From Piscinibacter aquaticus (GTDB lineage Bacteria; Pseudomonadota; Gammaproteobacteria; Burkholderiales; Burkholderiaceae_C), in assembly GCA_007994965.1 (NCBI GenBank), contig VOPW01000001.1, positions 1,922,001 through 1,986,000 on the forward strand: a DNA stretch of 64,000 nucleotides, in the 5' to 3' direction. The notes below the pieces were generated by a model. That model did no database searches. It was not told where the DNA came from and worked only from the letters and a program-made list of their open reading frames with translations. The translations under genes and the position numbers were made by a program. Below, in pieces: positions 9,297 to 63,209 of this stretch; positions within the stretch are counted from its first letter, which is position 1; each line of letters begins with the position of its first letter.

Positions 9297-9935
9297 TCAC
9301 TTGGCTGCGGCGTTCGCCGGCGCGGTGCCCAGCACCTGCAGGTAGGCGATCACCGCTTCCATCTCGGACCTGCCCTTGACCTCGTCGCCGGCCTTGGCGA
9401 TCTCGTCGTCGGTGTAGGGCACGCCGACCACGCGCAGCGCCTTCATCTTCGGCGCCATGTCGGCCGGATCGACCGTGGCCTTGTTGAGCCACGGGTAGGC
9501 CGGCATGTTCGACTCGGGCACGAGGTCGCGCGGGTTGGTCAGGTGGATGCGGTGCCAGTCGTCGCTGTACTTGCCGCCGACGCGGTGCAGGTCCGGGCCG
9601 GTGCGCTTGCTGCCCCACTGGAAGGGATGGTCGTAGACGAACTCGCCGGCCTTGGAGTAGTCGCCATAGCGCAGCGTCTCGGCGCGGAACGGGCGGATCA
9701 TCTGCGAGTGGCAGTTGTAGCAGCCCTCGCGGATGTAGACGTCGCGGCCGGCGAGTTGCAGCGCCGTGTAGGGCTTGAGGCCCGGCGCCGCCTGCGTGGT
9801 CGACTTCTGGAAGAACAGCGGCACGATCTCGACGAGGCCGCCCACGGCGACCACGATCAGGATCAGCACGATCATCAGGAAGTTGTTGGTCTCGATCTTC
9901 TCGTGCGAGAAGCCGGTGGCTTGGTTGTTGGCCAT
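9297..9935 (-). CDS. ccoO: CcoO, mono-heme cytochrome c subunit of cbb3 oxidase
   Basis: This 212-residue subunit is anchored by an N-terminal helix ([17 protein letters not shown]) and carries one heme site in [20 protein letters not shown]. It then has [20 protein letters not shown] and MPAYPWL, the usual CcoO signatures. The frame is intact. It is preceded by ccoN with a 21-base gap and followed by ccoQ. Confidence 0.97.
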
Positions 9936-20674: not shown

Positions 20675-21433
20675 ATGGACATCGCAGGCAAGGTCTTCAT
20701 CGTCACCGGCGGCGCTTCGGGCCTCGGTGAAGGCACCGCGCGCATGCTGGCGCGAAGCGGCGGCAAGGTCGTGATTGCCGATCTGCAGGCGGACAAGGGC
20801 GAGGCCGTCGCGAAGGAACTCGGAGGCGTGTTCGTCAAGTGCGACGTCAGCCAGGAGGCCGATGGCCAGGCTGCGGTCGCCGCGGCGCTCAAGCTCGGCA
20901 AGCTGGTCGGCCTCGTCAACTGCGCCGGCATCGCGCCGGCCGCCAAGACGGTGGGCAAGGACGGTGCGCATGCACTGGCGCTGTTCGCCAAGGTCGTGAC
21001 CGTCAACCTGGTCGGCAGCTTCAACATGATCCGTCTCGCGGCCGAGGCGATGGCGAAGAATGATCCGGAGCCGACCGGCGAGCGCGGCGTGCTCATCTCC
21101 ACGGCCAGCGTGGCCGCCTACGACGGCCAGATCGGCCAAGCCGCCTACTCCGCCTCGAAGGGTGGCGTGGTCGGCATGACGCTGCCCATCGCGCGCGATC
21201 TGGCGCGCAACGGCATCCGCAACATGACCATCGCGCCGGGCATCTTCGGCACGCCGATGCTGTTTGCCATGCCCAAGGAAGTGCAGGACGCGCTCGCTGC
21301 CGGCGTGCCCTTCCCGAGCCGCCTGGGCACGCCGGAGGACTACGCGAAGCTCGTGCACCAGATCATCACCAACGACATGCTCAATGGCGAGGTGATCCGG
21401 CTCGACGGGGCGATCCGGCTGGCGCCGAAGTGA
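20675..21433 (+). CDS. short-chain dehydrogenase of the 3-hydroxyacyl-CoA dehydrogenase type II group
   Basis: This 252-residue Rossmann-fold SDR has the cofactor motif [16 protein letters not shown] (NAG motif position), the catalytic Ser in [10 protein letters not shown] and the active-site YSASK. The C-terminal [19 protein letters not shown] and [13 protein letters not shown] match 3-hydroxyacyl-CoA/2-methyl-3-hydroxybutyryl-CoA dehydrogenases of fatty acid or isoleucine breakdown. ATG 20675 lies 12 bases after adk. The frame is intact, and a terminator follows. Confidence 0.88.
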
Positions 21434-21513: not shown

Positions 21514-23569
21514 TCAGGGCTGCGCCTTGCGCTTCGGCCCGATGTGCTCGTCGTAGAAGCGCAGCGAGCGGGTGTAGAAGTCGGTCACGTTGGCTTCCTT
21601 GTTGAAGCCGTGCGCCTCCTCCGCGTACACCTTCCACTCGATCGGCTTGCCGGCCTTGATCATGGCGTCGCGCATCTTCTCGCCATGGATCAGTGGTACG
21701 CGGACGTCGTCCGAACCCATGGTGAGCATGACGGCGCCCTTGATCTTGTCGGCATTGCGCGCCGGCGAGACACGCTGGAACATCTCGGCGTCGTCCTTGC
21801 TGTCGCCGATCTCGAGCTTGAACTCGTTCTCCAGGTAGCTGAACTCGAGGTTCTGCGCGATGTCGGACCACGCCACGCTCTGCATCAGCCCGAGGTCGGT
21901 GACGGCGACGAACGAGTGTGCGCACTTGAACAGATCCGGTTCTCGAACAAGGCCTTGCAGCGACGCATAACCGCCATAGCTGCCACCGTGCAGGCACATG
22001 CGGTCCTTGTCGACGATGCCCTCCTTCACGAGATGCAGCGCACCATCGGTGATGTCGTCCTGCGCGGCCTGACCCCATTGCTTGAAGCCGGAGACGTGCA
22101 GCTTGTGGCCATAGCCCTTCGAGGCCCGCGGTTCCGGTTCCAGGACGGCATATCCGCGCGATGCGAAGAACTGAGCCTCGGGCCAGCGGCCCCATTCCGC
22201 CCAGTAGTAACCGCGAACCTGTGGACCGCCGTGAATGTTCACGATCAGCGGCAGATTCTTCGCCGGTACGCCTCGCGGAAGCGTCACGTAGGCGGGAATC
22301 ATCTGTCCGTCGCGCCCCTTGTACTGGATGAACTTGCGTTCGGCCATCAACTCCGGCTTGACCCAGACGCGCGACTTCGCGATTACCTCAAGCTGGTTCT
22401 TGGCCGACTCGTACAGGTAGTAGGTGCCGGGGTCGATGTCCGAATAGCTGAAGATCAGCGCCCGTGAGCCGTCCTTGGTTGGCTTGATTACCGTGAAGCC
22501 AGGGATCGACGCCGCAAGGCTCTTCTCAAAGCGCAGATACGGCGAGTCGGCGCCGAAGAACACCTTCTTGGGCCGATCGGACTGGTAGGCGAAGCCGACG
22601 ACCTGCTTCGTCCGCGGATCGGCCAGCAGCCCCTCGCCGGACTCCTTGGCCCCGCAACCGATGTCAACGATCGGATCCTCCACCATCAGTTCGCCGAACT
22701 GCTTGGTCTGCGTGTCGTACTTCCAAAGCGCCGCCTTGTCCCTGTCCCGACGCGCCGTCACGTAGAGCGTGCGGTCGTCCGCATCGAAGCCGCAGACGTC
22801 GAGGTCCTCTCGCTCGTTCTGGCTGCTCTGCTCGAAGATCTTCTCCCATGCTCCGCCCGCGGCAGGCCGATGCCGGTCGTCATCGCATAAGGCTTGCCCT
22901 TTGCCGGCCGCGGCTCATAGCGCTGCGCGATTCGCGGAATGTTCTTGTTGTCGAGGACCCACCCGGCGGTTCGCCCCGGGCTCTCGAAACTCAGCAGCTC
23001 GAACTTCAGCGTGCGCATGTCGAGCTTGTAGACGTCACTCCACTCGCGGGAGCGCTGTCGCATCGCGACGTATGCGATCGTCGAATCAGCGTCTTCGGTT
23101 TCCAGCACTTCGGTCACGCGAAGCCCCCCGGGGAACCGTTGTCGTTGTAGCCGAACACCTCGCGCATGTCGGTGCCGTCGGGGGCAATCGTGTAGGCACC
23201 CTTGATTCGAAGCTGACCGGTGGCTTCCTGTCCGTCGGAGACAGTGAAGTAAAGGCGGTTGTTACCGATCCAGCGGATCGCACCCACGTCCCATCGATCG
23301 GTGGCGGTCACGCTCTTCGCTTGGCGCGTCGCCAGATCCACCACGATCAGGTTACCGCGGCCCTTGAAAGGTGCGACTGCGGCGATCCGCTTGCCATCCG
23401 GCGAGAGCCGCACGGTGCGGAAGTCGGGCAAGGAAAAGAACTGCGCGACGGGCACCTCGGCCGCGCTCTTGTAGTCCATCACCGGCTTGGGTTGCGCCAG
23501 GGTCACTGGCGCCATCAAAGCCGTCGCGCAGGCCGCAAGGCCCGCCAACATCCATCGGTACTTCGACAT
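21514..23569 (-). CDS. S9-family (prolyl oligopeptidase-type) serine peptidase, exported, frame broken twice
   Basis: This secreted or periplasmic peptidase of about 685 residues has an N-terminal signal peptide (YRWMLAGLAACATALMAPVTLAQ), a beta-propeller region, and a C-terminal alpha/beta-hydrolase domain. The nucleophile is in HGGSYGGYASLQG, the Asp in TMGSDDVRVP and the His in EEAHGF, plus the oxyanion segment VNIHGGPQVRGYY. Frame shifts lie near 23115, next to a C6 run, and near 22858. It lies just downstream of a TonB-dependent receptor gene on the same strand, a pairing that suggests uptake and cleavage of peptides. A terminator-like hairpin separates the two. Confidence 0.9.
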
Positions 23570-23617: not shown

Positions 23618-25366
23618 GCCAAAGAAGGTTTCGCCGGGCAGGTCGCAGGGGATCACCCCGCGGCCGCCCTGCGATCCCCGATCAGAAGAACGTGTACTTC
23701 GCGCGCAGCGTGAAGGTCCGGCCCAGCGCGTTGTGGTACGTCGCGCCCCACGAACGGGTCTGGCTGTTCACGCCGGCACGGTAGTCGAACGGCAGCTTCT
23801 CATCGCCCAAATTGTCGACTGCGAGCGACAGTTCGGTGTTCTTGAAGCCCTTGTAGCCGAAGAACAGGCCCAGCGTAGTCCATGCCTTGACTTCGCAGAA
23901 CTGATTGAGCGCAGCCGGGGCCGAGCACACGCCAACCGGGGTTAGCTTGTTCTTGTAGTTGCCCACATAGTTCGCCGACAACTCTGTCGTCCAGGGCCCT
24001 GTCTCAAGACCAATCCGCGCGCTCATGCGGAGGCGAGGCTGCTGCCAAGTGCCGTTGTAGTCTTCGACCTTTGCGTCCTTCGACGGCTGAACATAGAAGT
24101 GATCGAAGTACGTAGCCGCCGCGCCGTAGCTCAACTTGCCCGCTTCGCCAAGATTGGTCTTGCCGCGGAAGTCGATGTCCCAGCCTTCGACGCGGGTCCC
24201 AGCGAGGTTCACGTAGGGCAGATCGACACCCGTGATGGAACCGCTGGCGTCGCGGGTGATGAACTGCTGGAACGACGTCTGGTTGGCCAGCAGGAAGTCG
24301 ATGTCGGTGCTGGCAATCTCATTGGTGCGGTCGATACGCCAACGGTCGATCGAGACGCTCACGTCCTTGACCGGTTCGAACACCAGCCCGATCGTGTAGC
24401 TCTTGGACTTCTCTGGCTCCAGATTCGGCGAGCCCTTGATGTTCGCCTGGATGCTCAACGAGCAGTCGGGATTCAACGGATCGATGACCGGGCAGCGGAC
24501 CGGATCCTGCACGCCATTGGCAAAGCCGACGTTGACCGCCGGGCTGGTTTCGCGCGGGTTCGCGACGCGGAAACCGCGAGCATAGGTTCCGCGCAGAACG
24601 AGGTTCGACATCGCGCTCCACTTCAGGCCCACCTTCGGCGTGGTGGAGGTGCCACCGACGCTGTAGCGGTCGTGGCGCAGCGCGAGCTGGCTTTCCAGGC
24701 TCTTGAGCACCGGAAGATTGAACTCCGCATAGGCCGACTTGACACTGCGGCTCTCGTCGATATCGCCCAGCGAGCCGAAGCCGAACACCTCACCGTTGAT
24801 GAAACGATTGTCGTAGTCGTCCTTCTGCTTCTCCCGCCTTGCCTCAACGCCCGCGGCAAAGCCGACGGCACCACCGGGCAGCGTCATCGACGCGAACTCG
24901 GTCGACACTCGCGCGTCGGCAAAAGTGGTCGTCGCCTTGCCCTGGCGGGTCAACTTCGGGGAGATCTGCGCAATTACCGCGGCGCTGTTCTGCAGGCCCG
25001 GAACGTAGGTTCCAGCTACCAGAGCGGCATCCATCTCCGAAGTGATGATCGAGCCGGTCTGGTCAATCCTGACTTTGCCGCTCATCACGCCGGCCGCGGT
25101 GTCGAAGTCCCAGCCGCCGACCGTGCCCTTCACACCGGCGAGAAGGCGAGCCTCGTCGTTCGTGACCTTGTATGTGCGAGGACCGATGTCGCCGGCGCGG
25201 TAGAGGATGTCGATCGGGCCGGTGATGCCGTAGGCAGCACCGTCCATGCGCAGAGTCTGTTCGCCGTCCGGATCGTTGTAATAGAACTGGGGATCCTGCT
25301 GATACTTGTACTTGCTCTTGCCCAGGCCGCCCTCGAAGAATGCCGTGAGATTGGAGCTGAGCTGAA

Positions 25367-25403
25367 AGAGCCGGCCGCGCAAATCTGAGCACGGCGTAAG
25401 GTG
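25367..25403 (+). repeat. left terminal inverted repeat of the IS3 element
   Basis: It begins AGAGCCGGCCGCGC and contains TCTGAGCACGGCG. It pairs with the right end as AGAGCCGGC...CGC...TCTGA.CACG.CG, 28 of 37 positions identical. Confidence 0.8.
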
Positions 25404-25456
25404 GAAAAGCTGCTCCGATGGGCGAGGATAGAGCCTGAGACGAAGGAGCATGAAGC

Positions 25457-25762
25457 ATGAGCAGGAGACCACGCCGCAACCACTCAGCGGCGTTCAAGGC
25501 CAAGGTGGCGCTGGAGGCCTTGGCCGACGGCAAGACGATTGCCGAGATCGCGCACAAGCACGACGTTCACCCGCATCAGGTCACGGAGTGGCGGCGGCAG
25601 CTGATCGAGCGCGCGGCCGGGGTGTTCGGCGCGCCGGCGGTGGCCGCGGCGCCGCCGGTGGACCTCAAGGCGCTGCACGCCAAGATTGGCCAGCTGGCCC
25701 TGGAGAACGATTTTTTGGAAGGCGCGCTCAGCAAGGCCGGGTTGCTGAGCGTAAAGCGATGA
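25457..25762 (+). CDS. IS3-family OrfA (helix-turn-helix transposase subunit)
   Basis: This 101-residue protein begins MSRRPRRNHSAAFKAKVALE. It has the HTH region LADGKTIAEIAHKHDVHPHQVTEWRR followed by a leucine-zipper-like stretch (LHAKIGQLALENDFLEGAL). The HTH binds the terminal repeats. The stop overlaps the orfB start as ATGA. Confidence 0.92.
   Translation: MSRRPRRNHSAAFKAKVALEALADGKTIAEIAHKHDVHPHQVTEWRRQLIERAAGVFGAPAVAAAPPVDLKALHAKIGQLALENDFLEGALSKAGLLSVKR
25711..25717 (+). promoter_or_regulatory. candidate programmed -1 frameshift site (T TTT TTG)
   Basis: In the orfA frame the codons read GAT-TTT-TTG. Slipping one base back at T-TTT-TTG enters the orfB frame, which is open without a stop from before orfA through orfB. 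This is the place in orfA where IS3-type elements make the OrfAB fusion transposase. The sequence fit is direct; use of the site is inferred from the family. Confidence 0.6.
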
Positions 25763-26587
25763 TCGATCGCGATCACCGTCTGCCGGTCAAGCGTCAGGCC
25801 GAGTTGCTGGGCATCAGCCGCGGCACGGTGTACTACCAGCCCGCGCCGATCCCGGAGGCGGAACTGGCGCTCATGCGGCGCATCGACCGCCTTCACCTGG
25901 ATCACCCGTACGCCGGCAGCCGCATGCTGCGAGACCTGCTGCGCCTGCAGGGCGTGGAGGTCGGACGGCGGCACGTGGGCACGCTGATGCGGCGCATGGG
26001 CATCCAGGCGCTGTACCGCAAGCCCAACACGAGCAGGAAGCACCCGGCGCACGCGGTCTTCCCGTACGCGCTGCGCGGGCTGGCCATCGAGCGGGCCAAC
26101 CAGGTCTGGGCGCTGGACATCACCTACATCCCGATGGCACGCGGCTGGGTGTACTGGTGGCGGTGCTGGACTGGGCCAGCCGCCGGGTGCTGGCCCACCG
26201 GGTGTCGATCACGATGGAGGCGGACTTCTGCGTGGAGGCGCTGCGCGAGGCGGTGGCCCGCTGGGGTGCGCCGGAGATCGTCAACACCGACCAGGGCAGC
26301 CAGTTCAGCGGTGCGGAGTTCGTGGCCGAGGTGGCACGCATCGGCGCTCGCCAGAGCATGGACGGCCGGGGCTGCTGGCGGGACAACGTGTTCGTCGAGC
26401 GGCTGTGGCGCAGCGTGAAGTACGAGGAGGTGTACCTCAAGGCCTACGACAGCGTCAGCGCGGCGCGCCAGGGCCGGCCACCTACCTGGACTTCTACAAC
26501 AGCCGCAGGCCGCACCAAAGCCACGACGGGCGCACGCCGGACATGATCTACTTCGGCACGCTGCAGCCGCAGGCCCAGGCCGCATGA
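25759..26587 (+). CDS. IS3-family OrfB (DDE transposase), frame broken twice
   Basis: The integrase-core part of the transposase starts MIDRDHRLPVKRQAELLGIS. DDE residues are in VWALDITYIP, IVNTDQGSQFS and NVFVERLWRSVKYE, followed by the NSRRPHQSHDGRTP end motif. Frame shifts near 26155 and 26475 are needed, similar to the errors elsewhere. Whether this copy is active depends on those breaks being artefacts. Confidence 0.9.
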
Positions 26588-26697
26588 GGGTTGAAACCTG
26601 AGTACAGGTCCCAACCGGGGACCTCCGGCGGCCCCTGCGGGGGCTGATAGACAAAGACCGAAAAGCCAAACACCAATCGCAGCCAATCCACCTACAT

Positions 26698-26734
26698 CAG
26701 CTCACGGCGTGTTCAGACGAGCGGAGCCGGCTCT
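26698..26734 (-). repeat. right terminal inverted repeat of the IS3 element
   Basis: On the minus strand it reads AGAGCCGGCTCCGC...TCTGAACACGCCG, matching the left end as described for 25367-25403. The adjacent GAA at 26735-26737 is the target duplication. Confidence 0.8.
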
Positions 26735-27895
26735 GAACGTTCCCCGAACGAACAAGCTGTCGCGCTCTGCACCGGGCAGCATGGTGTTGTACTGAAAGAT
26801 GTCGATCACACATCGAGTCACGCCACCGACTACCCGCTGATTGGCAGGCGGGCAATTCGTTCCAGGCAGCGCCGAGATGATGTTGGTGTTCAGGTCGATT
26901 CGATTGCCGGGGTAGGAGTACGACGACCGGCCGTCAACAGGGATGCCCGACCTATTGAAGTTGCGCGAAGGATAGAAGCGGTTCTCGCTGACCGTCGCGT
27001 GATCCTGCGACAGGTGCTCGTAGATGCCGAAGATGTTGTAGCGGTCGGCGGCGATGTCGCCGATGCCACCGGACAGGCCGAAGCGCGTCACGCCCAGCGC
27101 GCCGGCCTCGTTGAAGCCGTGCTGCACCGTGGCCTCGAGCCCGGTGAAGTCGCCGCGCAGGATGATGTTGACGACGCCGGCGATGGCTTCCGAGCCGTAG
27201 ATCGCCGAGGCGCCGTCCTTCAGGATGTCGATGCGGTCGATCGCCGACACCGGGATCGAGTTCACGCTGGTCAGGACCTCCTGGAAGCCGGTGATGCCGT
27301 ACGGAGCAATGCGCCGGCCGTTGATCAGCACCAGCGTGGCGCCGCCGCCCAGGCCGCGCAGCGAGATCGTCGCGGCGCCCGGCGTGAAGCCGCTGAATTC
27401 CACGCCGCTGAGGCCGCCCTGCACCACCGTCAGCTTGGTGATCACGTCACCCAGCGTCGAGGCACCGGAACGCACCATGTCTTCGCGCGTGATCACCGTG
27501 ATGGGAGACGCGGTCTCCATGTCGGTGCGCTTGATGTTGGATCCGGTGACCTCCACGCGCTGCAACTGCTGCTGAGGGGGCTGCTGCTGCGCCTGTTGCG
27601 ACCATGCGAGCTGCGCGCTGGTAGCGCACATGGCCAGCACGGCCAGCCGAATACGACTTGGCTTGAACATCTGAAAGATCCTCCAGAAGGGGCTCACGCG
27701 TGCCCCGGGTTATGGTTGCTTGAGCGGCACCGCCGGATCACGGTCGGAGCACGCTGGTGCAAAGTCCCGAGAGAACTTTGTACTTTCAGCGTAACCCGAT
27801 GTGACCGTCGCGCCTCTCATGGGCTTCACTGATGAGGCGCGTTAGCAACAGCCCATGACCACGAGATGACGCAAGTGCCGGGCCTGAAAGCAAGA

Positions 27896-27919
27896 AAGCC
27901 CCCGCATTCGCGGGGGCTT
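27896..27919 (-). terminator. terminator of the tonB-exbB-exbD-TPR operon
   Basis: A 10-base stem AAGCCCCCGC / GCGGGGGCTT with loop ATTC lies about 27 bases past the TPR gene stop; on the minus strand it is followed by TCTTGCTTTC. Confidence 0.8.
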
Positions 27920-27945
27920 CCTGTCTAGACCACTGTGCGTTGCGC

Positions 27946-29153
27946 TCAGCCTCTTCGTTTGGCGTAGAGCGACCACAGCCTCGCGAGATCCGCCGTGCCA
28001 TCGTTGCCCGAGACGCTGCGCAACGTTGCCTGCGCCTTCGCATCTCCGGCAATCACCTGCGCGATCCCGAGGTGCAGCTTCGCGTCTTCCGGCCGCTTCA
28101 ATCCGCCCTTGGCGATGCCCTGCTGGATCATCGGCAGACCGCCCGCGCTGTCCCCTCCCATCGCGCGCGCGAAGCCGAGCTTGACCAGCGCATTGCCATC
28201 CTTGGCGGCCTTCGCCTCCGCCTCTTCCGCAGCACGGCCGGCCTTGGCTTCCGCCACCTTGCGCGCCACCAGATCGCGCAGACGCTTGTGGCGCTCGGCC
28301 TCGGCGCCCGTGCCGAGCACGCCTGCGGCAAAGCCCTTGTCGACCACCTGCTTCGCCTCGTCCTCGTGGCCCGCCTGCAGCGCGAGCTGGCCCATCTCCA
28401 TGTAGTCGGCCGCGGAAGACAGGCTGCCCGTGGCGAGGCTCAGCCGGTAGGTATCGAGCACCAGCCTGTCGCTGAAGCCCGGCTTGCGCTGCATGCGGCT
28501 GAGCAGATCGACCCAGTACTCCTTCTTCGGGTAGTAGGTCACCAGCCGTTCGAGCGCGAAGACCGTGCTGCTCGGGTCCTTCATCTGCGCGGCCGCGTTG
28601 AGCAGCAGGTTCAGCCGGTCCTGGGCCGGCACCGCGCCGCTCTTCTCTGCGGCCTGGATCTCGGTGGTGAGCTCGCGAGCCGCACCCGCGAAGTCGCCGC
28701 TGAGGTACTGGCTCTGGATCAGCAGCGTGCGGATCGCCGGGTTGGTGCCACCTTCCTTGAAGTAGCGCTGACCCCACTGCATCGCCTTGGCGTAGTCCTT
28801 CGCACGGTAGTACCCCCGGCGATCGACTCCGCCATGCGCGCCTTGTCGGCCGCCGAGATCTTGCCGCTGCCGGCGAGTGCCTCGAACGACTTCGCCGCCG
28901 TCTCCATGTCGCCCGCGCCCGACGCCGCGGCGATGCGCATGCGCTCGATCAGGAAGCTCTCGTTGGCGTTCTTGCTGCCGGCGGCGTCGGCCTCGCGGAC
29001 CTTAACCAGCGCCTCCTTGTACTTGCCCGCCTTGATGAGTTCCTGAGCCGCCTGCAGCGGCTTGCCCACGTCGGGGCGCACGGCCTCCTGGGCCTGGGCG
29101 CCGAGCGAGATGAGCAGCGCTGCCGCCAGCGCGGTGATGCGTGCGTGCTTCAT
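27946..29153 (-). CDS. exported tetratricopeptide-type protein of the TonB operon, frame broken once
   Basis: This protein of about 402 residues has a signal peptide (MKHARITALAAALLISLGAQA). Helical repeats rich in Ala and Leu follow (AAQELIKAGKYKEALVKVREAD, and later YMEMGQLALQAGHEDEAKQV), which look like TPR/SEL1-type repeats. A shift near 28816 joins the two parts. It is the last gene after two exbD genes with a 4-base gap. Similar periplasmic helical-repeat proteins accompany TonB systems; the partner is unknown. Confidence 0.8.
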
Positions 29154-29157
29154 GGCG

Positions 29158-29586
29158 CTACTTGACGAATTGCTCGTTGCCGACCATGCCGAGCTTGGTC
29201 ACGCCGAGACGCTGCGCCGAGGCCAGCACCATCGCCACCGACTTGTACTCCACCAGCTTGTTCGGCCGGATGTGCACCTCGGGCTGGTCGGGCAGCGCGG
29301 CGGCCTGCGACAGCCGCGCCTCGAGCGTGGCGCGGTCGGGCAGCGCCTCGCCGTTCCACAGCACCGTGCCGTCGAAGTCGATGTCGATGGTGACGACCAC
29401 CGGCTCCACCTGCGACGGCGGCGGCGCGCCCTGCGGCATGTTGAGGTTGACGCTGTGCAGCTGGATCGGGATGGTGATGATCAGCATGATGATCAGCACC
29501 AGCATCACGTCGATCAGCGGCGTCGTGTTGATGTCGAGCATCACGTCCGGCTCGCTGCCGCCGGAAGAGCCTACGTTCATTCCCAT
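29158..29586 (-). CDS. exbD: ExbD-family protein, second copy
   Basis: This 142-residue biopolymer transport protein has DVMLDINTTPLIDVMLVLIIMLIITIP, with the helix-start Asp of the ExbD proton pathway. The periplasmic domain has EVHIRPNKLVEYKSVAMV. It follows the first exbD by 3 bases. The two copies differ in the loop after the helix. Confidence 0.92.
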   Translation of the reverse strand: MGMNVGSSGGSEPDVMLDINTTPLIDVMLVLIIMLIITIPIQLHSVNLNMPQGAPPPSQVEPVVVTIDIDFDGTVLWNGEALPDRATLEARLSQAAALPDQPEVHIRPNKLVEYKSVAMVLASAQRLGVTKLGMVGNEQFVK

Positions 29587-29589
29587 GCG

Positions 29590-30011
29590 TTACCCCTTCG
29601 GCGGCGGCTCGGTCACGAAGCTGATCTTGGCGATCGCCGCGCGCTGGCACGCGAAGACGACCCGCCCGATCGATTCGTAGCGCGCGCCGAGATCGCCGCG
29701 GATGTGGACCTCCGGCTGGGGTTCATCACCGCGATCGTCTTGAGGCGCTGGAACAGCGCCTCGCTGTCGGCCACCGGCTGGGCGTTCCAGAACACGTCGC
29801 CATCCTTGTTGACCGAGATCTCGATGTTCTCGGGCTTGGTCTGGCGCGCGATGTTGGTTTCCAGCGGAAGCTGCATCGGCACGGTCTGCGTGACCACCGG
29901 AATCGTGATCAGGAAGATGATGAGCAGCACCAGCATCACGTCGACGAGCGGCGTGGTGTTGATGGCGCTGGTGAGGCCGTCTTCCTCACCGCTGCTGATT
30001 TGCATCGCCAT
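29590..30011 (-). CDS. exbD: ExbD-family protein, first copy, frame broken once
   Basis: It starts MAMQISSGEEDGLTSAINTT and continues LVDVMLVLLIIFLITIPVVTQ with the conserved helix Asp. The shift near 29721 (after KTIAVMNP) restores EVHIRGDLGARYESIGRVV, ending TEPPPKG. Length is about 140 residues. The paired exbD copies suggest a heteromeric ExbD assembly or two specialised partners. Confidence 0.9.
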
Positions 30012-30035
30012 GGCGTTCTCCTGGCGTTACGGCAA

Positions 30036-30865
<830 letters not shown>

Positions 30866-30931
30866 GGGGTTCTCTTTCGGGGTATGCAGAGAATTCGGTT
30901 GTGGTGACGGCAGATCCGGGTCGGACTGCCT

Positions 30932-31591
30932 TCAATCGATCTTGTAGAGGAACGGCACGGTCACGACCACGTCCTGGCCTTGGCCGGCACAGGTGTACTC
31001 GGAGACGATCTTGGACGCGGCGCGCAAAGATCGGGTGCGATGACTTCACCGTGCGCACGTTCTTGATCGAGCCGTCGGGACCCAGCGTGAACTGGATGAC
31101 CGCTTCGCCGCGCTCGAGGCCCGCACGGGCCGCTTCACGCGGGAACGACGCATCACCCATCTTCTGCTGGTAGTTGGAACAAGCCACGGACGCGGTGACC
31201 GTGGCGGGCGCGGAGGTGCCGGCGGCGCAGGCGCAGCGGTGGGCGGCGGCGCCGGCGCGATCACCACCGGTGCCGGGGGCGGCGTCGGCGTGGTGGCCGT
31301 GATGGTCGGCTGAGGCGGCGGCGGCGCAGCGATCTGCACTTCCGGCGGCGGGATGAACGGAGGCGGCGGCGCCTCGAGTTTCGGTGGCGGTGGCACCACC
31401 ACTTCGGGCGGCGGCGGCGGCTTCTTCACTTCCTCGATGACCTTGGTCTCGATCGGTGCTCGAACCACGTCGACCACCTTCTTGGCCGTGCCAGTCAGCA
31501 GCGCGTAGACGATGAAGCCGTGAAACAGGATGACAGCGGTGATACCGACGAGGTGTTTCCTCGGGTCTCGCTGCCGCTGGGCGAAGTTCAT
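30932..31591 (-). CDS. tonB: TonB energy transducer, frame broken twice
   Basis: TonB spans the periplasm to drive outer-membrane receptors. The N-terminal helix (HLVGITAVILFHGFIVYALL, with the SxxxH-like His) is followed by a long Pro-rich region (PPPPPEVVVPPPPKLEAPPP...) and a C-terminal TonB domain with GEAVIQFTLGPDGSIKNVRTV. Shifts lie near 31222 and 31025; the repaired end is VTVPFLYKID. Length is about 220 residues. It heads the operon with exbB and two exbD. Confidence 0.92.
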
Positions 31592-31691: not shown

Positions 31692-34433
31692 TCAGAACTT
31701 GTACGACGCGTTGGCGTAGTAGGTGCGCCCACGCGGATCGTAGTAGCGGTCGTCAAAGCCGCGCATCTGGCCCTTGTTGTTGCCGCCAGTGACCACCGAG
31801 AAGGGCGGATTGCGGTCGAACACGTTGAGCACGCCAAGCTGGATGGTCCAAGCCTTCGCCGGCGTCCACACCGACTGCCAGTCGAACGTGACCTGCGGAC
31901 GAACCTTGCGACGGATCTCGGCCGTGTTGCCGTTCGGCAGACCGTCCGGCCCCAGTTCCTCCGCTTCCTGGACGCTGTCGTCGTAGCCCGACTTGAAGTT
32001 GGCCGTCAGAGTGTGCGACCGGGCTTGAGACACCTTGACCGTATTCGCCCACTTCCCTGAATCCGGAAGGTCACCGTGGTGTCCTCGCCGAATCGACCCA
32101 GGCTGGAGAAGTACGCATCGCCCGGCAGCAGCTGATAGCGATTACGCAGCATATAGGTGGTGGTCAGCTGCGAGGTCAAGCCGCCCAGCGCAGTGTCGAA
32201 CCGCCCAATGACGTTGAAGTCGATGCCGGCGTTCCACGAATTGCCGAGGTTGGCATTGCCCTGGAAGATCGCCAGATAGTTCTCGCCGGTGCCCGCCAAC
32301 TTGGTACGGAACGACGACGCATACTTCGTCGGGTTAGCAAAGAACTCCGACTCCGGGATCTGACCGAAGCTGTCGCGGATACCAACCACCCAGTAGTCCG
32401 CGCCGAAGGACAGGTTCTGACTCGGTTCCAGGACGATGCCGAAACTCGCTTGCTTCGACTTCTCCGGCTTCAGGTTCAGGTTTCCGCCGGCGAAGACGTC
32501 GTACTGATCTCCGTCGGGACGGCAGACTGCGCCCAACCCAGTAGCGATCTGCTGCAGCGCGGTATTCGTCGAGCAGTCGTACTGATCGCTCGTCACGCCG
32601 AACGACTCTTCCGGGCTCTTCACTTGCTTCACGGTCGGTGCACGGAAGCCCGTGCCGATCGAGCCGCGCAGCAACACGTTGCTCGACGGCTGCCAGCGAA
32701 CAGCCACCTTACCGTTCGTCGACTCGCCTACACCCTGGTACTTGTCGAAGCGAACGGCGCCCGAGGTTTCGATGGTCTTCGTCACGGGCGCGACGAGTTC
32801 GGCAAAGGCACCCGCGACCTTGCGCTGCGCCGAGTACGGGATCACTGCCGCTTCGTCACCGAAGCGCACTTCGCCGTTCAGACCCTGCGCCAAAGGACTC
32901 GGAGCGTTGTTGTTCTTCTCGATGCCGAAGTTCGCGCCGAGGCCGATGCTGAGCGCACCGCCTGCCATCGGCATGATCTCCCGCGAAACCTTCGCGTTGA
33001 TCATGTCCAGTGTCGACTTGCCGCCGTTGTAGTAGCCGTTGCGCAGAACGCCCTGCAGCGCATCGATCGCCCCTTGCGTTTGCTGGCCCGGGCCAACGAA
33101 TGGATCGAGCAGTCCGGCGAACAGAACGTCGGTGAACAGCGCGTTCTGCTCAGGGTAGCCCTTGTTGAAGATCTTCGACTTGCTGACGGAGTGGACGATC
33201 GAAGCACCGTAGTCCCAGCCAAGCACGGTGCCTTCGGCACCCAGCGTGAAATGCAGCAGGTCGGACTTGTTGACAGACGTGCGTTGACCAAGATCGAACA
33301 CGCGATATCGTGCCGTGACGTTGCCGGTGGCCGGCAGGCCGGGAAGGCCCTGCACCGCGGTCGGCAGGCTACCCACGGGGACCGGAATCGACCCAGGCAC
33401 CGGCGCGATCCGCGAGGTCTGCTCGCTCTTCGCGGTCAGCAGTTCTGCGGTCACGCGGTGATCACCCGCCAGCTTCATCTGACCCTGAAGGTAGAGGTTG
33501 CTGCGCTTCTGCTCAGGGTAGATCTCGAGTTGCGTGACGTAGTCGTAGTAACACGCGCGGGCGCCAAAGCGGAACGTGTCCGGCGGGCAGAAGCCGTTCT
33601 CGATGAAGTACGGGCTGACGATCTCGTCGTCAGCGGAGCCAGCCCGTTGGGAATGACGATGTTGGCGGGGATCGGGCTCGGCGAACCGCTGTTGATCTGA
33701 TAGTTCTTGCCGTTGTCAGCGAACTTGACCAGCGCCGACTTGGCGAAGTCGCGCTGCGTGGACTTCAGCTTGGTCCGCTTGTCCGCGCTGGCTGCGATCA
33801 AGACGTTGAACCCGTCAGTGTCGATGTCGCCAAAGCCTTTGGTGGCGCTGATGCGGGTCTCGCGCGCGCCGCCGCTCGGGCTCGAGAAGCCCACGCTGAC
33901 ATCACCATCCGAGGCATTGCGGCGGGTGATGAAGTTCACCACGCCGGCAACGGCATCGCTGCCATACAGTGCCGAGGCGCCGTCCGTCAGAATCTCAACG
34001 CGCTCAATGGCGGCAAGCGGAATCGTATTCAGGTCAACCGCGGCCCCGAAGCCGGTGATCGCCTGACCACCGAATTGCGTGATGCGCTTGCCGTTCAGCA
34101 GGACCAGTGTTCGCTGTTCGCCGAGAGCGCGGAGGAGATGCCAACGAAGCCACCGGTTTCACCGCCCACCGACGCCGCCTGGGACACTGAACCCTGCGCG
34201 GCAGGGAGCGCCTGCAGCAGGTCGGCCACGTTTGTGGCGCCAGTTCGCTGAATCTGCTCGCGAGTAATGGTCTGGACCGGTAGCGCCCCTTCGGTCTGGA
34301 CGCGGCGAATCGAAGAACCCGTGATCTCGACGCGCTCGAGAGTGGCTTGGCCGAAAGCAGGCACGCTGGTAATGCCCGCGGCACCGCCCAGCGCGATCAG
34401 CACTGCGCTGCAAACCTTGGTTCGCTTGTGCAT
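31692..34433 (-). CDS. TonB-dependent outer-membrane receptor, frame broken several times
   Basis: This receptor of about 912 residues starts MHKRTKVCSAVLIALGGAAG with a signal peptide, after a GAGGAG ribosome site. The plug domain has VEITGSSIRRVQTEGALPVQ and ITREQIQRTGATNVADLLQALP. The barrel ends YYDPRGRTYYANASYKF, with the terminal Phe typical of outer-membrane barrels. Frame shifts lie near 34113, 33643 and 32055. It lies just upstream of tonB on the same strand, so it is a probable substrate receptor of that TonB system. The substrate is not clear; relatives include peptide and sugar receptors. Confidence 0.9.
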
Positions 34434-34781: not shown

Positions 34782-36612
34782 CTACTCTGCCTGCACCGCA
34801 ATCCGCGGCACCGCCGCCAGCAGCGTGCGCGTGTAGTCGCTGCGCGGCGCGCCCAGCACCTGTTCGACGCTGCCCGCCTCCTCGATGCGGCCGCGCTGCA
34901 TCACCGCAATGCGGTCGGCGATGTACTCGACCACGCCGATGTTGTGCGTGATGAACAGGTACGAGACGCCGGTGTCGCGCTGCAGTTCGCGCAGCAGGTT
35001 GAGGATCTGCGCCTGCACCGAGACATCGAGCGCCGAGGTCGGCTCGTCGCAGACGATCAGGCGCGGCTCGACGGCCAGCGCGCGCGCGATGGCGATGCGC
35101 TGTCGCTGCCCGCCGGAGAACTCGTGCGGATAGCGCTGCAGCGCGTCGCGGCGCAGGCCGACCTGGTCGACCAGCGTGTGAAGCCGCTCGCGGCGCTGCA
35201 CGGCATCGAGCTCCGGCCGCAGGGCGACCAAGCCCTCCTCGAGGATGTCGAACACGCGCATGCGCGGGTCCAGCGAGCCGAACGGATCCTGGAAGACGAT
35301 CTGCACCGCACGGCGCGCCGGCGCAGCGCCTCGCCTTCGAGCGCGAAGAGATCCTGGCCCTGGAACAGCGCCTGCCCGCCGATCACCGCGGCGGCGCAAC
35401 AGCTGCACGATCGCCTTGCCGGTGGTGGTCTTGCCGCAACCCGATTCACCCACCAGCGCCAGCGTGCGGCCCGACGGAATGTCGAACGAGACACCATCCA
35501 CCGCGGTGAAGGCACCGGCCACGCGCTGCAGCAGGCCCTTGCGGATCGGGAAGCGCACCGACAGGTCGCGCACCTCGAGCAAGGGCTTGTCGGCGCCGTC
35601 GCCGCGCGGCGCTTCGTAGCGCAGCGGCTCGGCCGGGAGCCTGGCCTCCACCGCTGCGGCACCTTCGCGGTACAGCACGCAGCGCACGCTGCTGCCGCCC
35701 GCGCGCTCGAGCGCCGGCGGCGCGGCGGGCATGCGTCGTGGGCCTGATCGCAGCGCGGCGCGAAGCGGCAGCCGCCGAACTCCTGCCACAGCGGCGGCAC
35801 GGTGCCGGCGATCGCGGCGAGCGCCCCGCCCCGCTTGGCGGTGTCGGGCAGCGCGCGCAGCAGCGCCCGCGCATACGGATGCTTGGGCGCGGTGAAGAAC
35901 TCCTGCGCGCTCGCCACCTCGACGATCTGGCCGGCGTACATCAGCGCCACCTGCTGCGCCATGCCCGAGACCACGGCAGGTCGTGGGTGATGAGCAGCAT
36001 GCCCATGCCCTGCTCGCGCTGCAGCTGGCGCAGCAGATCGAGGATCTGCGCCTGGATGGTCACGTCCAGCGCCGTGGTCGGCTCGTCGGCGATCAGGAAG
36101 TCGGGTTCGCAGGCCAGCGTCATCGCGATCATCACGCGCTGCTTCTGGCCGCCCGACAGGCGGAACGGATACTCGTCGATGCGACGCTGCGGCTCGGGGA
36201 TGCCGACGCGGCCCAGCCATTCGATCGCCCTCGCCCGCGCCGCCTCGCCGCGCAGTTCGGTGTGCGCCTCGATCGCCTCGACGATCTGCTCGCCCACACG
36301 CATCACCGGGTTCAGGCTGGTGGCCGGCTCCTGGAAGATCATGCCGATGCGCCCGCCGCGCACCGCGCGCATGCTCGATTCGGGCAGGGCCAGCACGTCG
36401 TGGCCTTCGATGTCGATGCGGCCGCTGGTCACGCTGCCGTTGTCGGGCAACAGCCGCATCAGCGCCAGCGCAGTCATGCTCTTGCCGCAGCCGGATTCGC
36501 CCACCAGTGCAAAGGTCTCGCCGCGGCGGATGGCCGTGCTCAGGCCGTCGATGGCGCGCACCAGGCCGGCATCGGCATCCAGCGCCACCTTGAGTTCGTC
36601 GATGGTCAGCAT
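34782..36612 (-). CDS. yejF: YejF-type peptide ABC transporter, fused double ATPase, frame broken several times
   Basis: This protein of about 605 residues has two ABC ATPase domains. The first has Walker A GESGCGKSMTALALM, signature LSGGQKQRVMIAM and Walker B DFLIADEPTTALDV. A CRFAPRCDQAHDACP-type Cys segment follows, as in oligopeptide ATPases. The second has GESGCGKTTTGKAI, FSGGQRQRIAIARAL and LIVCDEPTSALDV. Shifts lie near 35970, 35733, 35395 and possibly 35330. It powers the permeases encoded just upstream. The Yej system takes up peptides and microcin C in enterobacteria. Confidence 0.88.
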
Positions 36613-62645: not shown

Positions 62646-63209
62646 ATGGAAGCAATCGGCACTCTAGACCGGCCCCGCCGCGCTGCCAAGCGGGGCATGC
62701 TCGCGCACTTCTTCGCCGTCCTGCTGGCGTTCGCAGCGCTCTTCGGTGCGAGCACGCCGGCCCACGCCGTGGACGGCTGCAAGGTCCTGCTCTGCCTCGC
62801 CGCCCCGAGCTGGCGCTCGATCCCTGAGTGCGTGCCGACGATCAATCAGCTGCACCGCGATCTGGCGCGCGGCAAGCCCTTCCCGGTCTGCTCGATGGCT
62901 GGTGCCGGCAACTCGGCCAACAACACCTGGGCCAGCGCACCCGGCTACTGCCCTCCGCAGTACACCCGCGTCTTCGATGGCGAGAGCGGCCCGATCTACA
63001 CCTGCGACTACGCCGGTGCCGTCACGGTGAACATCAACGGCGCGCCCTTCACCCGGACACGGTGGAACGCCGGAGGCGACACCGTCACCGAGTTCACCCC
63101 GGCCGCGAAGGCCCAGCTCGGCACCTGGGACACCAAGTTCGACGACGACTACGCCGCGTGGTTCGCCGCGCTGCCGCCGCCGGCACCTGTCGCCGAGTCC
63201 GGCTACTGA
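62646..63209 (+). CDS. KikA-like exported conjugation-associated protein
   Basis: This 187-residue protein has a signal peptide (MLAHFFAVLLAFAALFGASTPAHA). A Cys-rich domain follows: VDGCKVLLCLAAPSWRSIPEC, ARGKPFPVCSMAGAGNSAN, GYCPPQYTRVFD and YTCDYAGAVTVNINGAPF. The VDGCKVLLCLA start resembles KikA-type proteins of VirB conjugation operons. It precedes virB1 and virB2 here, which supports the call. The frame is intact. Confidence 0.6.
   Translation: MEAIGTLDRPRRAAKRGMLAHFFAVLLAFAALFGASTPAHAVDGCKVLLCLAAPSWRSIPECVPTINQLHRDLARGKPFPVCSMAGAGNSANNTWASAPGYCPPQYTRVFDGESGPIYTCDYAGAVTVNINGAPFTRTRWNAGGDTVTEFTPAAKAQLGTWDTKFDDDYAAWFAALPPPAPVAESGY

What the first reader, a model, noticed from the sequence alone, without database searches (positions are those of the whole stretch)
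23682..27670. TonB-dependent receptor interrupted by an IS3 element beside an S9 peptidase gene
The receptor is split with 312 codons on one side and about 560 on the other. The IS has matching ends and a GAA target repeat. The receptor-peptidase pair looks like a peptide uptake unit that was recently inactivated. A second receptor and a full TonB operon lie 4 kb away.
Basis: partly seen in the sequence, partly recalled or inferred. Interest (0 to 1): 0.55.

Follow-up and report, generated by a model that had tools for sequence, protein, structure and literature searches.

The report
Swapped-in uptake receptor broken by transposon
In a Piscinibacter-like bacterium, an outer-membrane uptake receptor sitting beside a TonB energy-supply operon has been cut in two by a mobile element; the break itself is ordinary, but the receptor and its neighbouring peptidase prove to be an exchangeable pair that most close relatives lack and that one relative carries in a different version at the same spot.

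Summary
A TonB-dependent receptor (minus strand, 23682-27670) is split into 312 and 560 codons by a 1368-bp IS3-family element (25367-26734) with imperfect inverted ends and a GAA target repeat. Five near-identical full copies lie in this genome, none in the seven congeners held. An S9 peptidase with a signal-peptide-like start follows; its two frame breaks look like assembly indels, since neighbouring core genes (adk, kdsB-type, exbB, tonB) are broken likewise.

The receptor is inactivated, probably recently; peptide uptake is unproven and a lasso-peptide reading failed its tests. The pair is an accessory cassette between two conserved genes, absent at the junction read in six of eight genus genomes and present in another version in one (G007). 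Leader and signal peptide match G007 (18/22), but the mature receptor and peptidase match another genus, G362 (plug 103/120). The tree rejects window+G007 (p 1.4e-6). So the mature part was probably exchanged behind a retained leader before the IS broke it. Against this: receptors here diverge fast in general (the second receptor is also only about 43% identical to G007's), so low identity alone proves nothing. A new member of known kinds of event.

The parts
27671..27945 (-). leader between the TPR-like gene and receptor 1 (holds a GCCCCCGC...GCGGGGGC hairpin); retained part of the mosaic
   Evidence: window:27590-27925 found in 2 of 8 genus genomes, here and G007 at 72%; in G001 and G003 similarity stops at the TPR-like gene's stop
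27599..27670 (-). signal-peptide codons 1-24 of receptor 1 (signal peptide named by eye), matching G007 and not G362
   Evidence: 18/22 to G007, 7/23 to G362; of 330 receptor pairs with plug identity at most 60%, only window-G007 itself reaches its score
26735..27670 (-). receptor 1, N-terminal part (signal peptide, plug, start of barrel), 312 codons; the open frame runs 10 more codons into the IS
   Evidence: (Plug PF07715)
25367..26734 (+). IS3-family insertion element, 1368 bp, GAA on both sides
   Evidence: NF033516 transpos_IS3, 245 bits for the open copy in L001
25457..25762 (+). IS OrfA (helix-turn-helix, PF01527)
25760..26587 (+). IS OrfB (integrase core); frame breaks in this copy, open in the copy at C2:6383
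   Evidence: PF00665, PF13276 on the L001 copy
23682..25366 (-). receptor 1, C-terminal part (beta-barrel), 560 codons plus stop; cut off from its signal peptide
   Evidence: PF00593
21514..23569 (-). S9 (prolyl oligopeptidase family) peptidase with a signal-peptide-like start (by eye) and GGSYG motif; read in three frames in this assembly
   Evidence: (PF00326)
20675..21430 (+). SDR gene (PF00106), conserved right-hand neighbour of the site
27946..29153 (-). conserved left-hand neighbour, called TPR-like here by eye (window piece: no Pfam or NCBIfam hit; intact G007 counterpart: borderline ANAPC3 repeat hit); one frame break
29158..31591 (-). Ton operon: ExbD, ExbD, ExbB (Pfam on the window), TonB (Pfam TonB_C on the G007 counterpart)
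31692..34433 (-). second TonB-dependent receptor (frame-broken in the assembly); in one 100/100 clade with the second receptors of P. defluvii, G006 and G007 at 43-45% identity, while G001/G003 carry another type in this slot

Best explanation
Receptor 1 and its S9 peptidase form an accessory uptake cassette at the end of a conserved Ton operon in a Piscinibacter-like genome. The mature receptor and the peptidase belong to another lineage than those at the same site in G007, while the leader and signal peptide are shared with G007: they were probably exchanged by recombination inside or next to the signal-peptide codons (the mosaic is shown by comparison; the exchange is inferred). Later an IS3-family element that is multiplying in this strain jumped into the receptor and cut it after codon 312. 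The plug half ends after ten IS-derived codons and the barrel half has no signal peptide, so no working receptor can be made (inferred). The peptidase downstream is probably silenced too unless it has its own promoter (inferred). The strain keeps its Ton operon and second receptor.
For: IS limits, ends, GAA repeat, five copies. Halves line up with the intact G007 receptor. Adjacency of the TPR-like and SDR genes is the usual state: 28 of 80 named loci have the SDR gene downstream, 24 of the 28 with a gap of at most 237 bp, three with 1.4-2.0 kb of other genes, one (L049 = G007) with a receptor-S9 cassette. In the genus, G001-G006 lack a cassette at the junction read; G000 and G007 have one. 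Mosaic: signal peptide 18/22 to G007 against 7/23 to G362 (Fisher p 8e-4); plug 63/120 against 103/120 (p 3e-8); control over 378 receptor pairs. Receptor tree: window+G362 100/100, G007+G310+G149 99/97, window+G007 rejected, p-AU 1.4e-6. Peptidase tree: window+G362 100/100, window+G007 rejected. Cassette GC 63% against 67.3% in the flanks.
Against: Only two genus genomes carry a cassette, so the exchange rests on one pair plus one outside relative. The second receptor slot, where window and G007 do form one well-supported clade with congeners, is also only about 43% identical between them, so low identity of receptor 1 is not itself a sign of exchange; the case rests on the tree and the mosaic. 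Direction of exchange is unknown; G362's copy lies elsewhere and on two contigs. The peptidase tree does not reject window+G362+G007 as one group (p 0.26), and the same receptor test did not finish. The signal-peptide stretch is short, and in the control G362's signal region was trimmed by my start rule (9 columns compared). No expression data.
Confidence: 0.75

Rival explanations
1. Plain vertical history: one ancestral receptor-peptidase pair was inherited by window and G007 and diverged fast; the IS hit came later. G362's related pair was acquired from a Piscinibacter. No exchange took place at this site.
For: Same site, same order, shared leader and signal peptide. Receptors at this locus do diverge fast: slot-2 receptors of one clade are 43-45% identical to the window's. 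The peptidase grouping of window, G362 and G007 is not rejected.
Against: G007's receptor joins G310 and G149 of another genus rather than window+G362 (99/97), and window+G007 is rejected for receptor (p 1.4e-6) and peptidase. The signal peptide and the mature part of window point to different relatives.
Confidence: 0.15
2. The IS insertion is a mis-assembly or a minority variant in the sequenced population, so most cells have an intact receptor.
For: The assembly is error-prone: 77% completeness, many frame breaks in core genes; five near-identical IS copies can mislead assembly.
Against: GAA on both sides at this copy, and unique flanks that line up within one receptor gene. Three of five copies have their own direct repeats.
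Confidence: 0.08
3. The pair scavenges and opens lasso peptides (isopeptidase plus TonB receptor, as in astexin-type clusters).
For: AtxE2-type isopeptidases are prolyl-oligopeptidase homologues whose clusters hold a TonB-dependent transporter (PMC9266682, passages read). NCBIfam NF033523 rings weakly (49.7 bits window, 89.7 bits G007).
Against: Scores far under the cut-off of 400 and below Dpp5. Lasso B-type protein (PF13471) in 0 of 4 genomes searched. No molecule named isopeptidase among the 34 and 48 solved-structure sequences matched at E 1e-10.
Confidence: 0.03
4. The two receptor halves are still made and assemble into a working or regulatory split protein.
For: Both halves remain open frames after insertion.
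Against: The barrel half would start inside the IS without a signal peptide (by eye), and no sigma-70-like promoter was found between 25100 and 28000 on either strand (a weak test, 0.2 expected in shuffles). None of the 7 other genus genomes has a full copy of this IS.
Confidence: 0.03

Closest known systems
IS3-family insertion sequences (ISRj2-like; an unnamed full-length relative in a Variovorax sp. WDL1 plasmid)
   Same: OrfA plus DDE OrfB, terminal inverted repeats, 3-bp target repeat; the Variovorax copy aligns over positions 1-1368 at 82.6%
   Different: the only named element in the 20 of 1370 plasmid records listed, ISRj2, is about 70% identical; ends read AGAGCC...GGCTCT, not the TG...CA usual in the family (the latter recalled)
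TonB-dependent receptors of the plug-barrel type (PF07715 + PF00593)
   Same: plug, barrel, signal-peptide-like start, Ton operon alongside
   Different: no NCBIfam receptor model above its cut-off for either half, so the ligand is unknown; split by the IS
Pyoverdine receptor (fpvA) locus of Pseudomonas aeruginosa
   Same: receptor types spread over clonal complexes in a way the authors call suggestive of multiple recombinatorial events (PMC2777410, passages read)
   Different: there the receptor matches a pyoverdine type made by the strain; here the partner is an S9 peptidase at the end of a Ton operon and the ligand is unknown
Lasso-peptide isopeptidase plus TonB transporter clusters
   Same: S9-type hydrolase next to a TonB receptor
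   Different: fails the family cut-off, and no lasso B-type protein in the 4 genomes searched

Membership tests
IS3 family | DDE transposase of the IS3 type | tested here: met
   NF033516 245 bits against cut-off 160 for the open copy (L001); rve PF00665, HTH_21
IS3 family | two overlapping frames OrfA/OrfB, OrfB in the -1 frame | tested here: met
   seen in copies W and L001; the other three copies differ by one T in the T run between the frames, likely assembly noise
IS3 family | terminal inverted repeats and a short target repeat | tested here: met
   26 of 34 end positions; 3-bp direct repeat at 3 of 5 copies, absent at 2
IS3 family | ends TG...CA (recalled) | tested here: not met
   ends AGAGCC...GGCTCT in all 5 copies; the filing rests on the transposase
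TonB-dependent receptor | plug and barrel domains in one protein | tested here: met
   one domain on each half; both in the intact G007 homologue
S9 peptidase | prolyl oligopeptidase catalytic domain with GxSxG | tested here: met
   (GGSYG at residue 259 of the C-terminal fragment)
AtxE2-type lasso isopeptidase | score above the NF033523 cut-off | tested here: not met
   49.7 and 89.7 bits against 400
AtxE2-type lasso isopeptidase | lasso synthesis protein in the genome | tested here: not met
   PF13471 in 0 of 4 genomes
Recombining receptor locus (fpvA-like) | receptor history in conflict with the flanking genes | tested here: met
   flanks put window among Piscinibacter (G001, G003, G006, G007); receptor 1 joins G362 of another genus (no TPR-like flank gene was found in G362, and it is not in the flank tree)
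Recombining receptor locus (fpvA-like) | cognate ligand pathway co-inherited | not testable with these tools
   ligand unknown

The most novel reading that the evidence does not exclude
This Ton locus is a receptor-exchange site. At its downstream end a fixed leader plus signal peptide acts as a socket into which mature receptor-peptidase cassettes from other genera are swapped by homologous recombination; the second receptor slot at its upstream end also changes type within the genus (G001/G003). Negative selection by something that uses the receptor as a door (phage or peptide toxin) then knocks receptors out again: IS here, in-frame stop in the nearest relative G362, empty junction in six congeners.
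Probability: 0.25. Interest if true: 0.55.

Novelty: new member of a known kind. Interest (0 to 1): 0.34.

Why it matters
TonB receptors are entry doors for nutrients, bacteriocins and phages (general knowledge), and their exchange and loss is best documented, as far as I recall, for pseudomonad siderophore receptors. Here one site in an environmental betaproteobacterium shows presence/absence, two alternative versions, a mosaic junction at the signal peptide and a fresh IS knock-out, so gain, swap and loss can be read at a single place. The knock-out alone is ordinary.

Tried and rejected
Lasso-peptide isopeptidase reading: rejected by score, by sequence search of solved structures at E 1e-10 and by absence of PF13471. 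Known RNA in the leader: nothing at gathering score in the window; nine sub-threshold hits at 27828-27977 centre on a G+C-rich hairpin, and the terminator scan, which wants a T run, counted none. Frame breaks of the peptidase as pseudogene evidence: rejected, because adk, the kdsB-type gene, ExbB, the second ExbD, TonB and oligopeptide-transporter genes nearby show the same against G007 (Pfam names of most of the G007 counterparts, ExbB and ExbD on the window). Outward promoter in the IS: none found, weak test. First named-genome scan with the barrel half found no relative. Plasmid records: 110 hold receptor matches, all under 60% identity, top-ranked row 32.7%. Class-wide sample: 0 of 368 other genomes at E 1e-90. 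Literature searches: 11 papers, listing and abstract starts seen; none reports a TonB receptor-S9 cassette in what I saw; 2; 0; 2, each naming Piscinibacter and TonB-dependent once; 10 of 40 listed; 4; 0. The library is partial; absence from print is not claimed.

Rows dropped: L020 and L021 from the receptor tree (30 rows); G034, G012 and G032 receptors and the window's second receptor from the pair control (28 receptors); 6 of 29 other peptidase loci (L161-L163, L165, L166, L168) from the peptidase tree. The second TPR-like fragment of G005 (contig C100) was not read.
Full report
WHAT IS THERE. The minus strand at 23682-27670 encodes a TonB-dependent receptor in two pieces. The first has 312 codons from an ATG at 27670 and carries the plug (PF07715, 79.5 bits). 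The second has 560 codons plus stop and carries the barrel (PF00593, 127.3 bits). Between them lies a 1368-bp element, 25367-26734. Its ends read AGAGCCGGC... and ...GCCGGCTCT, match at 26 of the first 34 positions when one is reverse-complemented, and are flanked by GAA on both sides. Four further full copies in the same genome share the ends. A 3-bp direct repeat is present at 3 of the 5 copies (GAA, AGC, GGC) and not at the other two (CGA/CGT, GTC/CAG). The copy at C2:6383 has an open 385-residue frame holding OrfB and scores 245 bits for NCBIfam IS3 transposase, cut-off 160. The top plasmid match, in Variovorax sp. WDL1, aligns over 1-1368 at 82.6%. None of the seven other genus genomes held has a full copy; six of the seven have short matches only and one has none. 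The five copies differ mainly by single bases and short indels, fitting recent spread plus assembly noise. Against the intact 888-residue receptor of G007 the halves align at residues 1-316 and 323-888.

THE PEPTIDASE. The S9 gene (PF00326, 155.6 bits) starts with a signal-peptide-like stretch near 23569 (by eye) and ends at 21514. It is read in three frames. The same assembly breaks adk, the kdsB-type gene, ExbB, the second ExbD, TonB and two oligopeptide-transporter genes against their intact G007 counterparts (names by Pfam), and the genome is scored 77% complete. The breaks are therefore no evidence of decay. The top solved-structure relatives are S9 enzymes such as 7c72 and 5l8s.

THE SITE. 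The taxon is Piscinibacter-like: a search of named genomes with the gene I call TPR-like (a name by eye; see parts) has four Piscinibacter records among its five best rows. The compared flanks of G004 and G002 are identical to those of P. defluvii SH-1 and MAG ACE_PRO42, and those of G006 stand at zero branch length from MAG USSF_maxbin.046. Of the 80 named loci, 28 have the SDR gene downstream: 24 with a gap of at most 237 bp, three with 1.4-2.0 kb of other genes, and one, L049, with a 5.0-kb receptor-S9 cassette. The other 52 have no SDR match downstream in the DNA held. A check of all 80 for relatives of these receptors or peptidases within 8 kb downstream (70 of 80 hold at least 3 kb there) found same-strand receptors in L049 and L064, opposite-strand receptors in L087 and weak S9 matches in L088, L091 and L111. 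Within the genus, G001-G006 have the two genes next to each other at the junction read, and G000 and G007 have a cassette. The flank tree puts the window in one group with G001/G003 and G007/G006 (96/97), so presence is patchy: G006, next to G007, lacks it.

THE MOSAIC. The cassette is 42% (barrel) and 46% (peptidase) identical to G007's, where most flanking gene pieces are 75-96%. That gap alone proves nothing: the second receptor, 31692-34433, sits in one 100/100 clade with the second receptors of P. defluvii, G006 and G007, yet is only 43-45% identical to them, and G001/G003 carry another receptor type in that slot. Receptors at this locus diverge fast or are replaced. The evidence for exchange is different. 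In a sample of 399 family genomes four others reach E 1e-90 with the barrel half: G362, G007, G310, G149. G362, of another genus, is the nearest, at 62% over the N-terminal and 55% over the C-terminal part. Its S9 is 75% identical over 264 residues; it starts beside the receptor and appears to continue on a second contig, near a metallo-beta-lactamase-fold gene that looks like pqqB (by eye; Pfam Lactamase_B_2), and no TPR-like gene was found in that genome. The window's signal peptide, however, is nearly that of G007: residues 1-24 are 18/22 with G007 and 7/23 with G362, whereas residues 46-165 are 63/120 with G007 and 103/120 with G362 (Fisher p 8e-4 and 3e-8). As a control I scored signal region and plug for all 378 pairs of 28 receptors: of the 330 pairs with plug identity at most 60%, only window-G007 itself reaches its signal-region score (the start rule used there cut G362's region short, to 9 compared columns). 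The leader plus signal-peptide DNA is found only in window and G007 among 8 genus genomes. The receptor tree (30 rows, 888 columns) joins window with G362 (100/100) and G007 with G310 and G149 (99/97), and rejects window+G007 (p-AU 1.4e-6). The S9 tree (24 rows) joins window with G362 (100/100) and rejects window+G007, but does not reject the three together (p 0.26); the same three-row test on the receptor did not finish. Cassette GC is 63% against 67.3% for the flanks. The simplest account is a shared old leader and signal peptide with the mature receptor and peptidase exchanged. Which lineage gave and which received is not known.

HOW IT WORKS NOW. The first half ends after ten codons read from the IS, and the second half would start inside the IS without an export signal, so no outer-membrane receptor is expected (inference). 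The peptidase lies downstream in the same direction and is probably affected (inference). The ligand is unknown: no NCBIfam receptor model reaches its cut-off. Pairing with S9 is not constant in this receptor type: in G310, G149, G184 and G157 no S9 relative was found in the 16-18 kb read, while G362 and G007 have one. G035 has a more distant receptor and an S9 match about 1 kb apart on one strand. The peptide-uptake reading is possible but unproven. The receptor of G362 itself carries an in-frame stop (L169, 2848-2850), so both members of this receptor branch that I found are broken, by different means. This could be chance, an error in a draft genome, or selection against the receptor.

COMPARED WITH WHAT IS KNOWN. 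IS inactivation of surface receptors (general knowledge) and recombination at receptor loci are known kinds of event. For pyoverdine receptors of Pseudomonas aeruginosa the authors call the distribution suggestive of multiple recombinatorial events (PMC2777410, passages read). Lasso-peptide isopeptidases, prolyl-oligopeptidase homologues in clusters with a TonB-dependent transporter (PMC9266682, passages read), are the nearest functional analogy, but membership fails. I rate the finding as a new member of a known kind, with the exchange site as the part worth following.

Noticed in passing
window 26570-26665; own contig C2 at 9431-9494, 35895-35974, 62648-62710, 64732-64874, 91076-91161, 97186-97252, 117112-117177: A 65-160 bp non-coding, hairpin-forming stretch after the transposase gene recurs at 71-86% DNA identity; at six of these seven C2 places it lies within about 450 bp of transposase pieces only 27-42% identical in protein (none seen close to 64732-64874 on that strand). 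The alignment fold of nine stretches gives 22 pairs, 5 with changes on both sides, but a covariation term of only -0.1; not in Rfam at E 1; one version matched 2 of 72,556 plasmid records, both Variovorax sp. WDL1. Several C2 copies are near-identical, so the sequences are not independent.
   Followed up: partly
own contig C2 (122476 bp; loci L033-L039): Holds three of the five IS copies and many other transposase matches; GC 61.9% against 67.2% in the window. In the 8 of 147 plasmid records listed for one 20-kb stretch, 8% or less is covered, mostly at transposase genes. Looks like a plasmid or island rich in insertion elements.
   Followed up: partly
L169:1372-4005 (G362): The closest relative of the broken receptor has an in-frame TAG in its barrel part.
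   Followed up: partly
window 31692-34433 and the same slot in L043, L044, L032, L047, L048, L065: The second receptor slot of the Ton locus also varies: G001/G003 carry another receptor type there than window, P. defluvii, G006 and G007, and in a Rhizobacter MAG (L065) the slot-2 receptor groups with the receptor-1 type.
   Followed up: partly
L064:9161-12334 (Rhizobacter sp. MAG): A third, distant TonB receptor (28-39% identical) also sits directly downstream of the TPR-like gene; the contig ends soon after.
   Followed up: no
L052, L054, L073 between the TPR-like and SDR genes: Other single genes occupy the junction: in L052 and L054 a TPR protein with an aspartyl/asparaginyl beta-hydroxylase domain, in L073 a gamma-glutamyltranspeptidase.
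   Followed up: partly
window 17000-38000: Frequent frame breaks in conserved genes, adk and the kdsB-type gene included, show an indel-rich assembly; frame breaks in this window should not be read as pseudogenes.
   Followed up: yes
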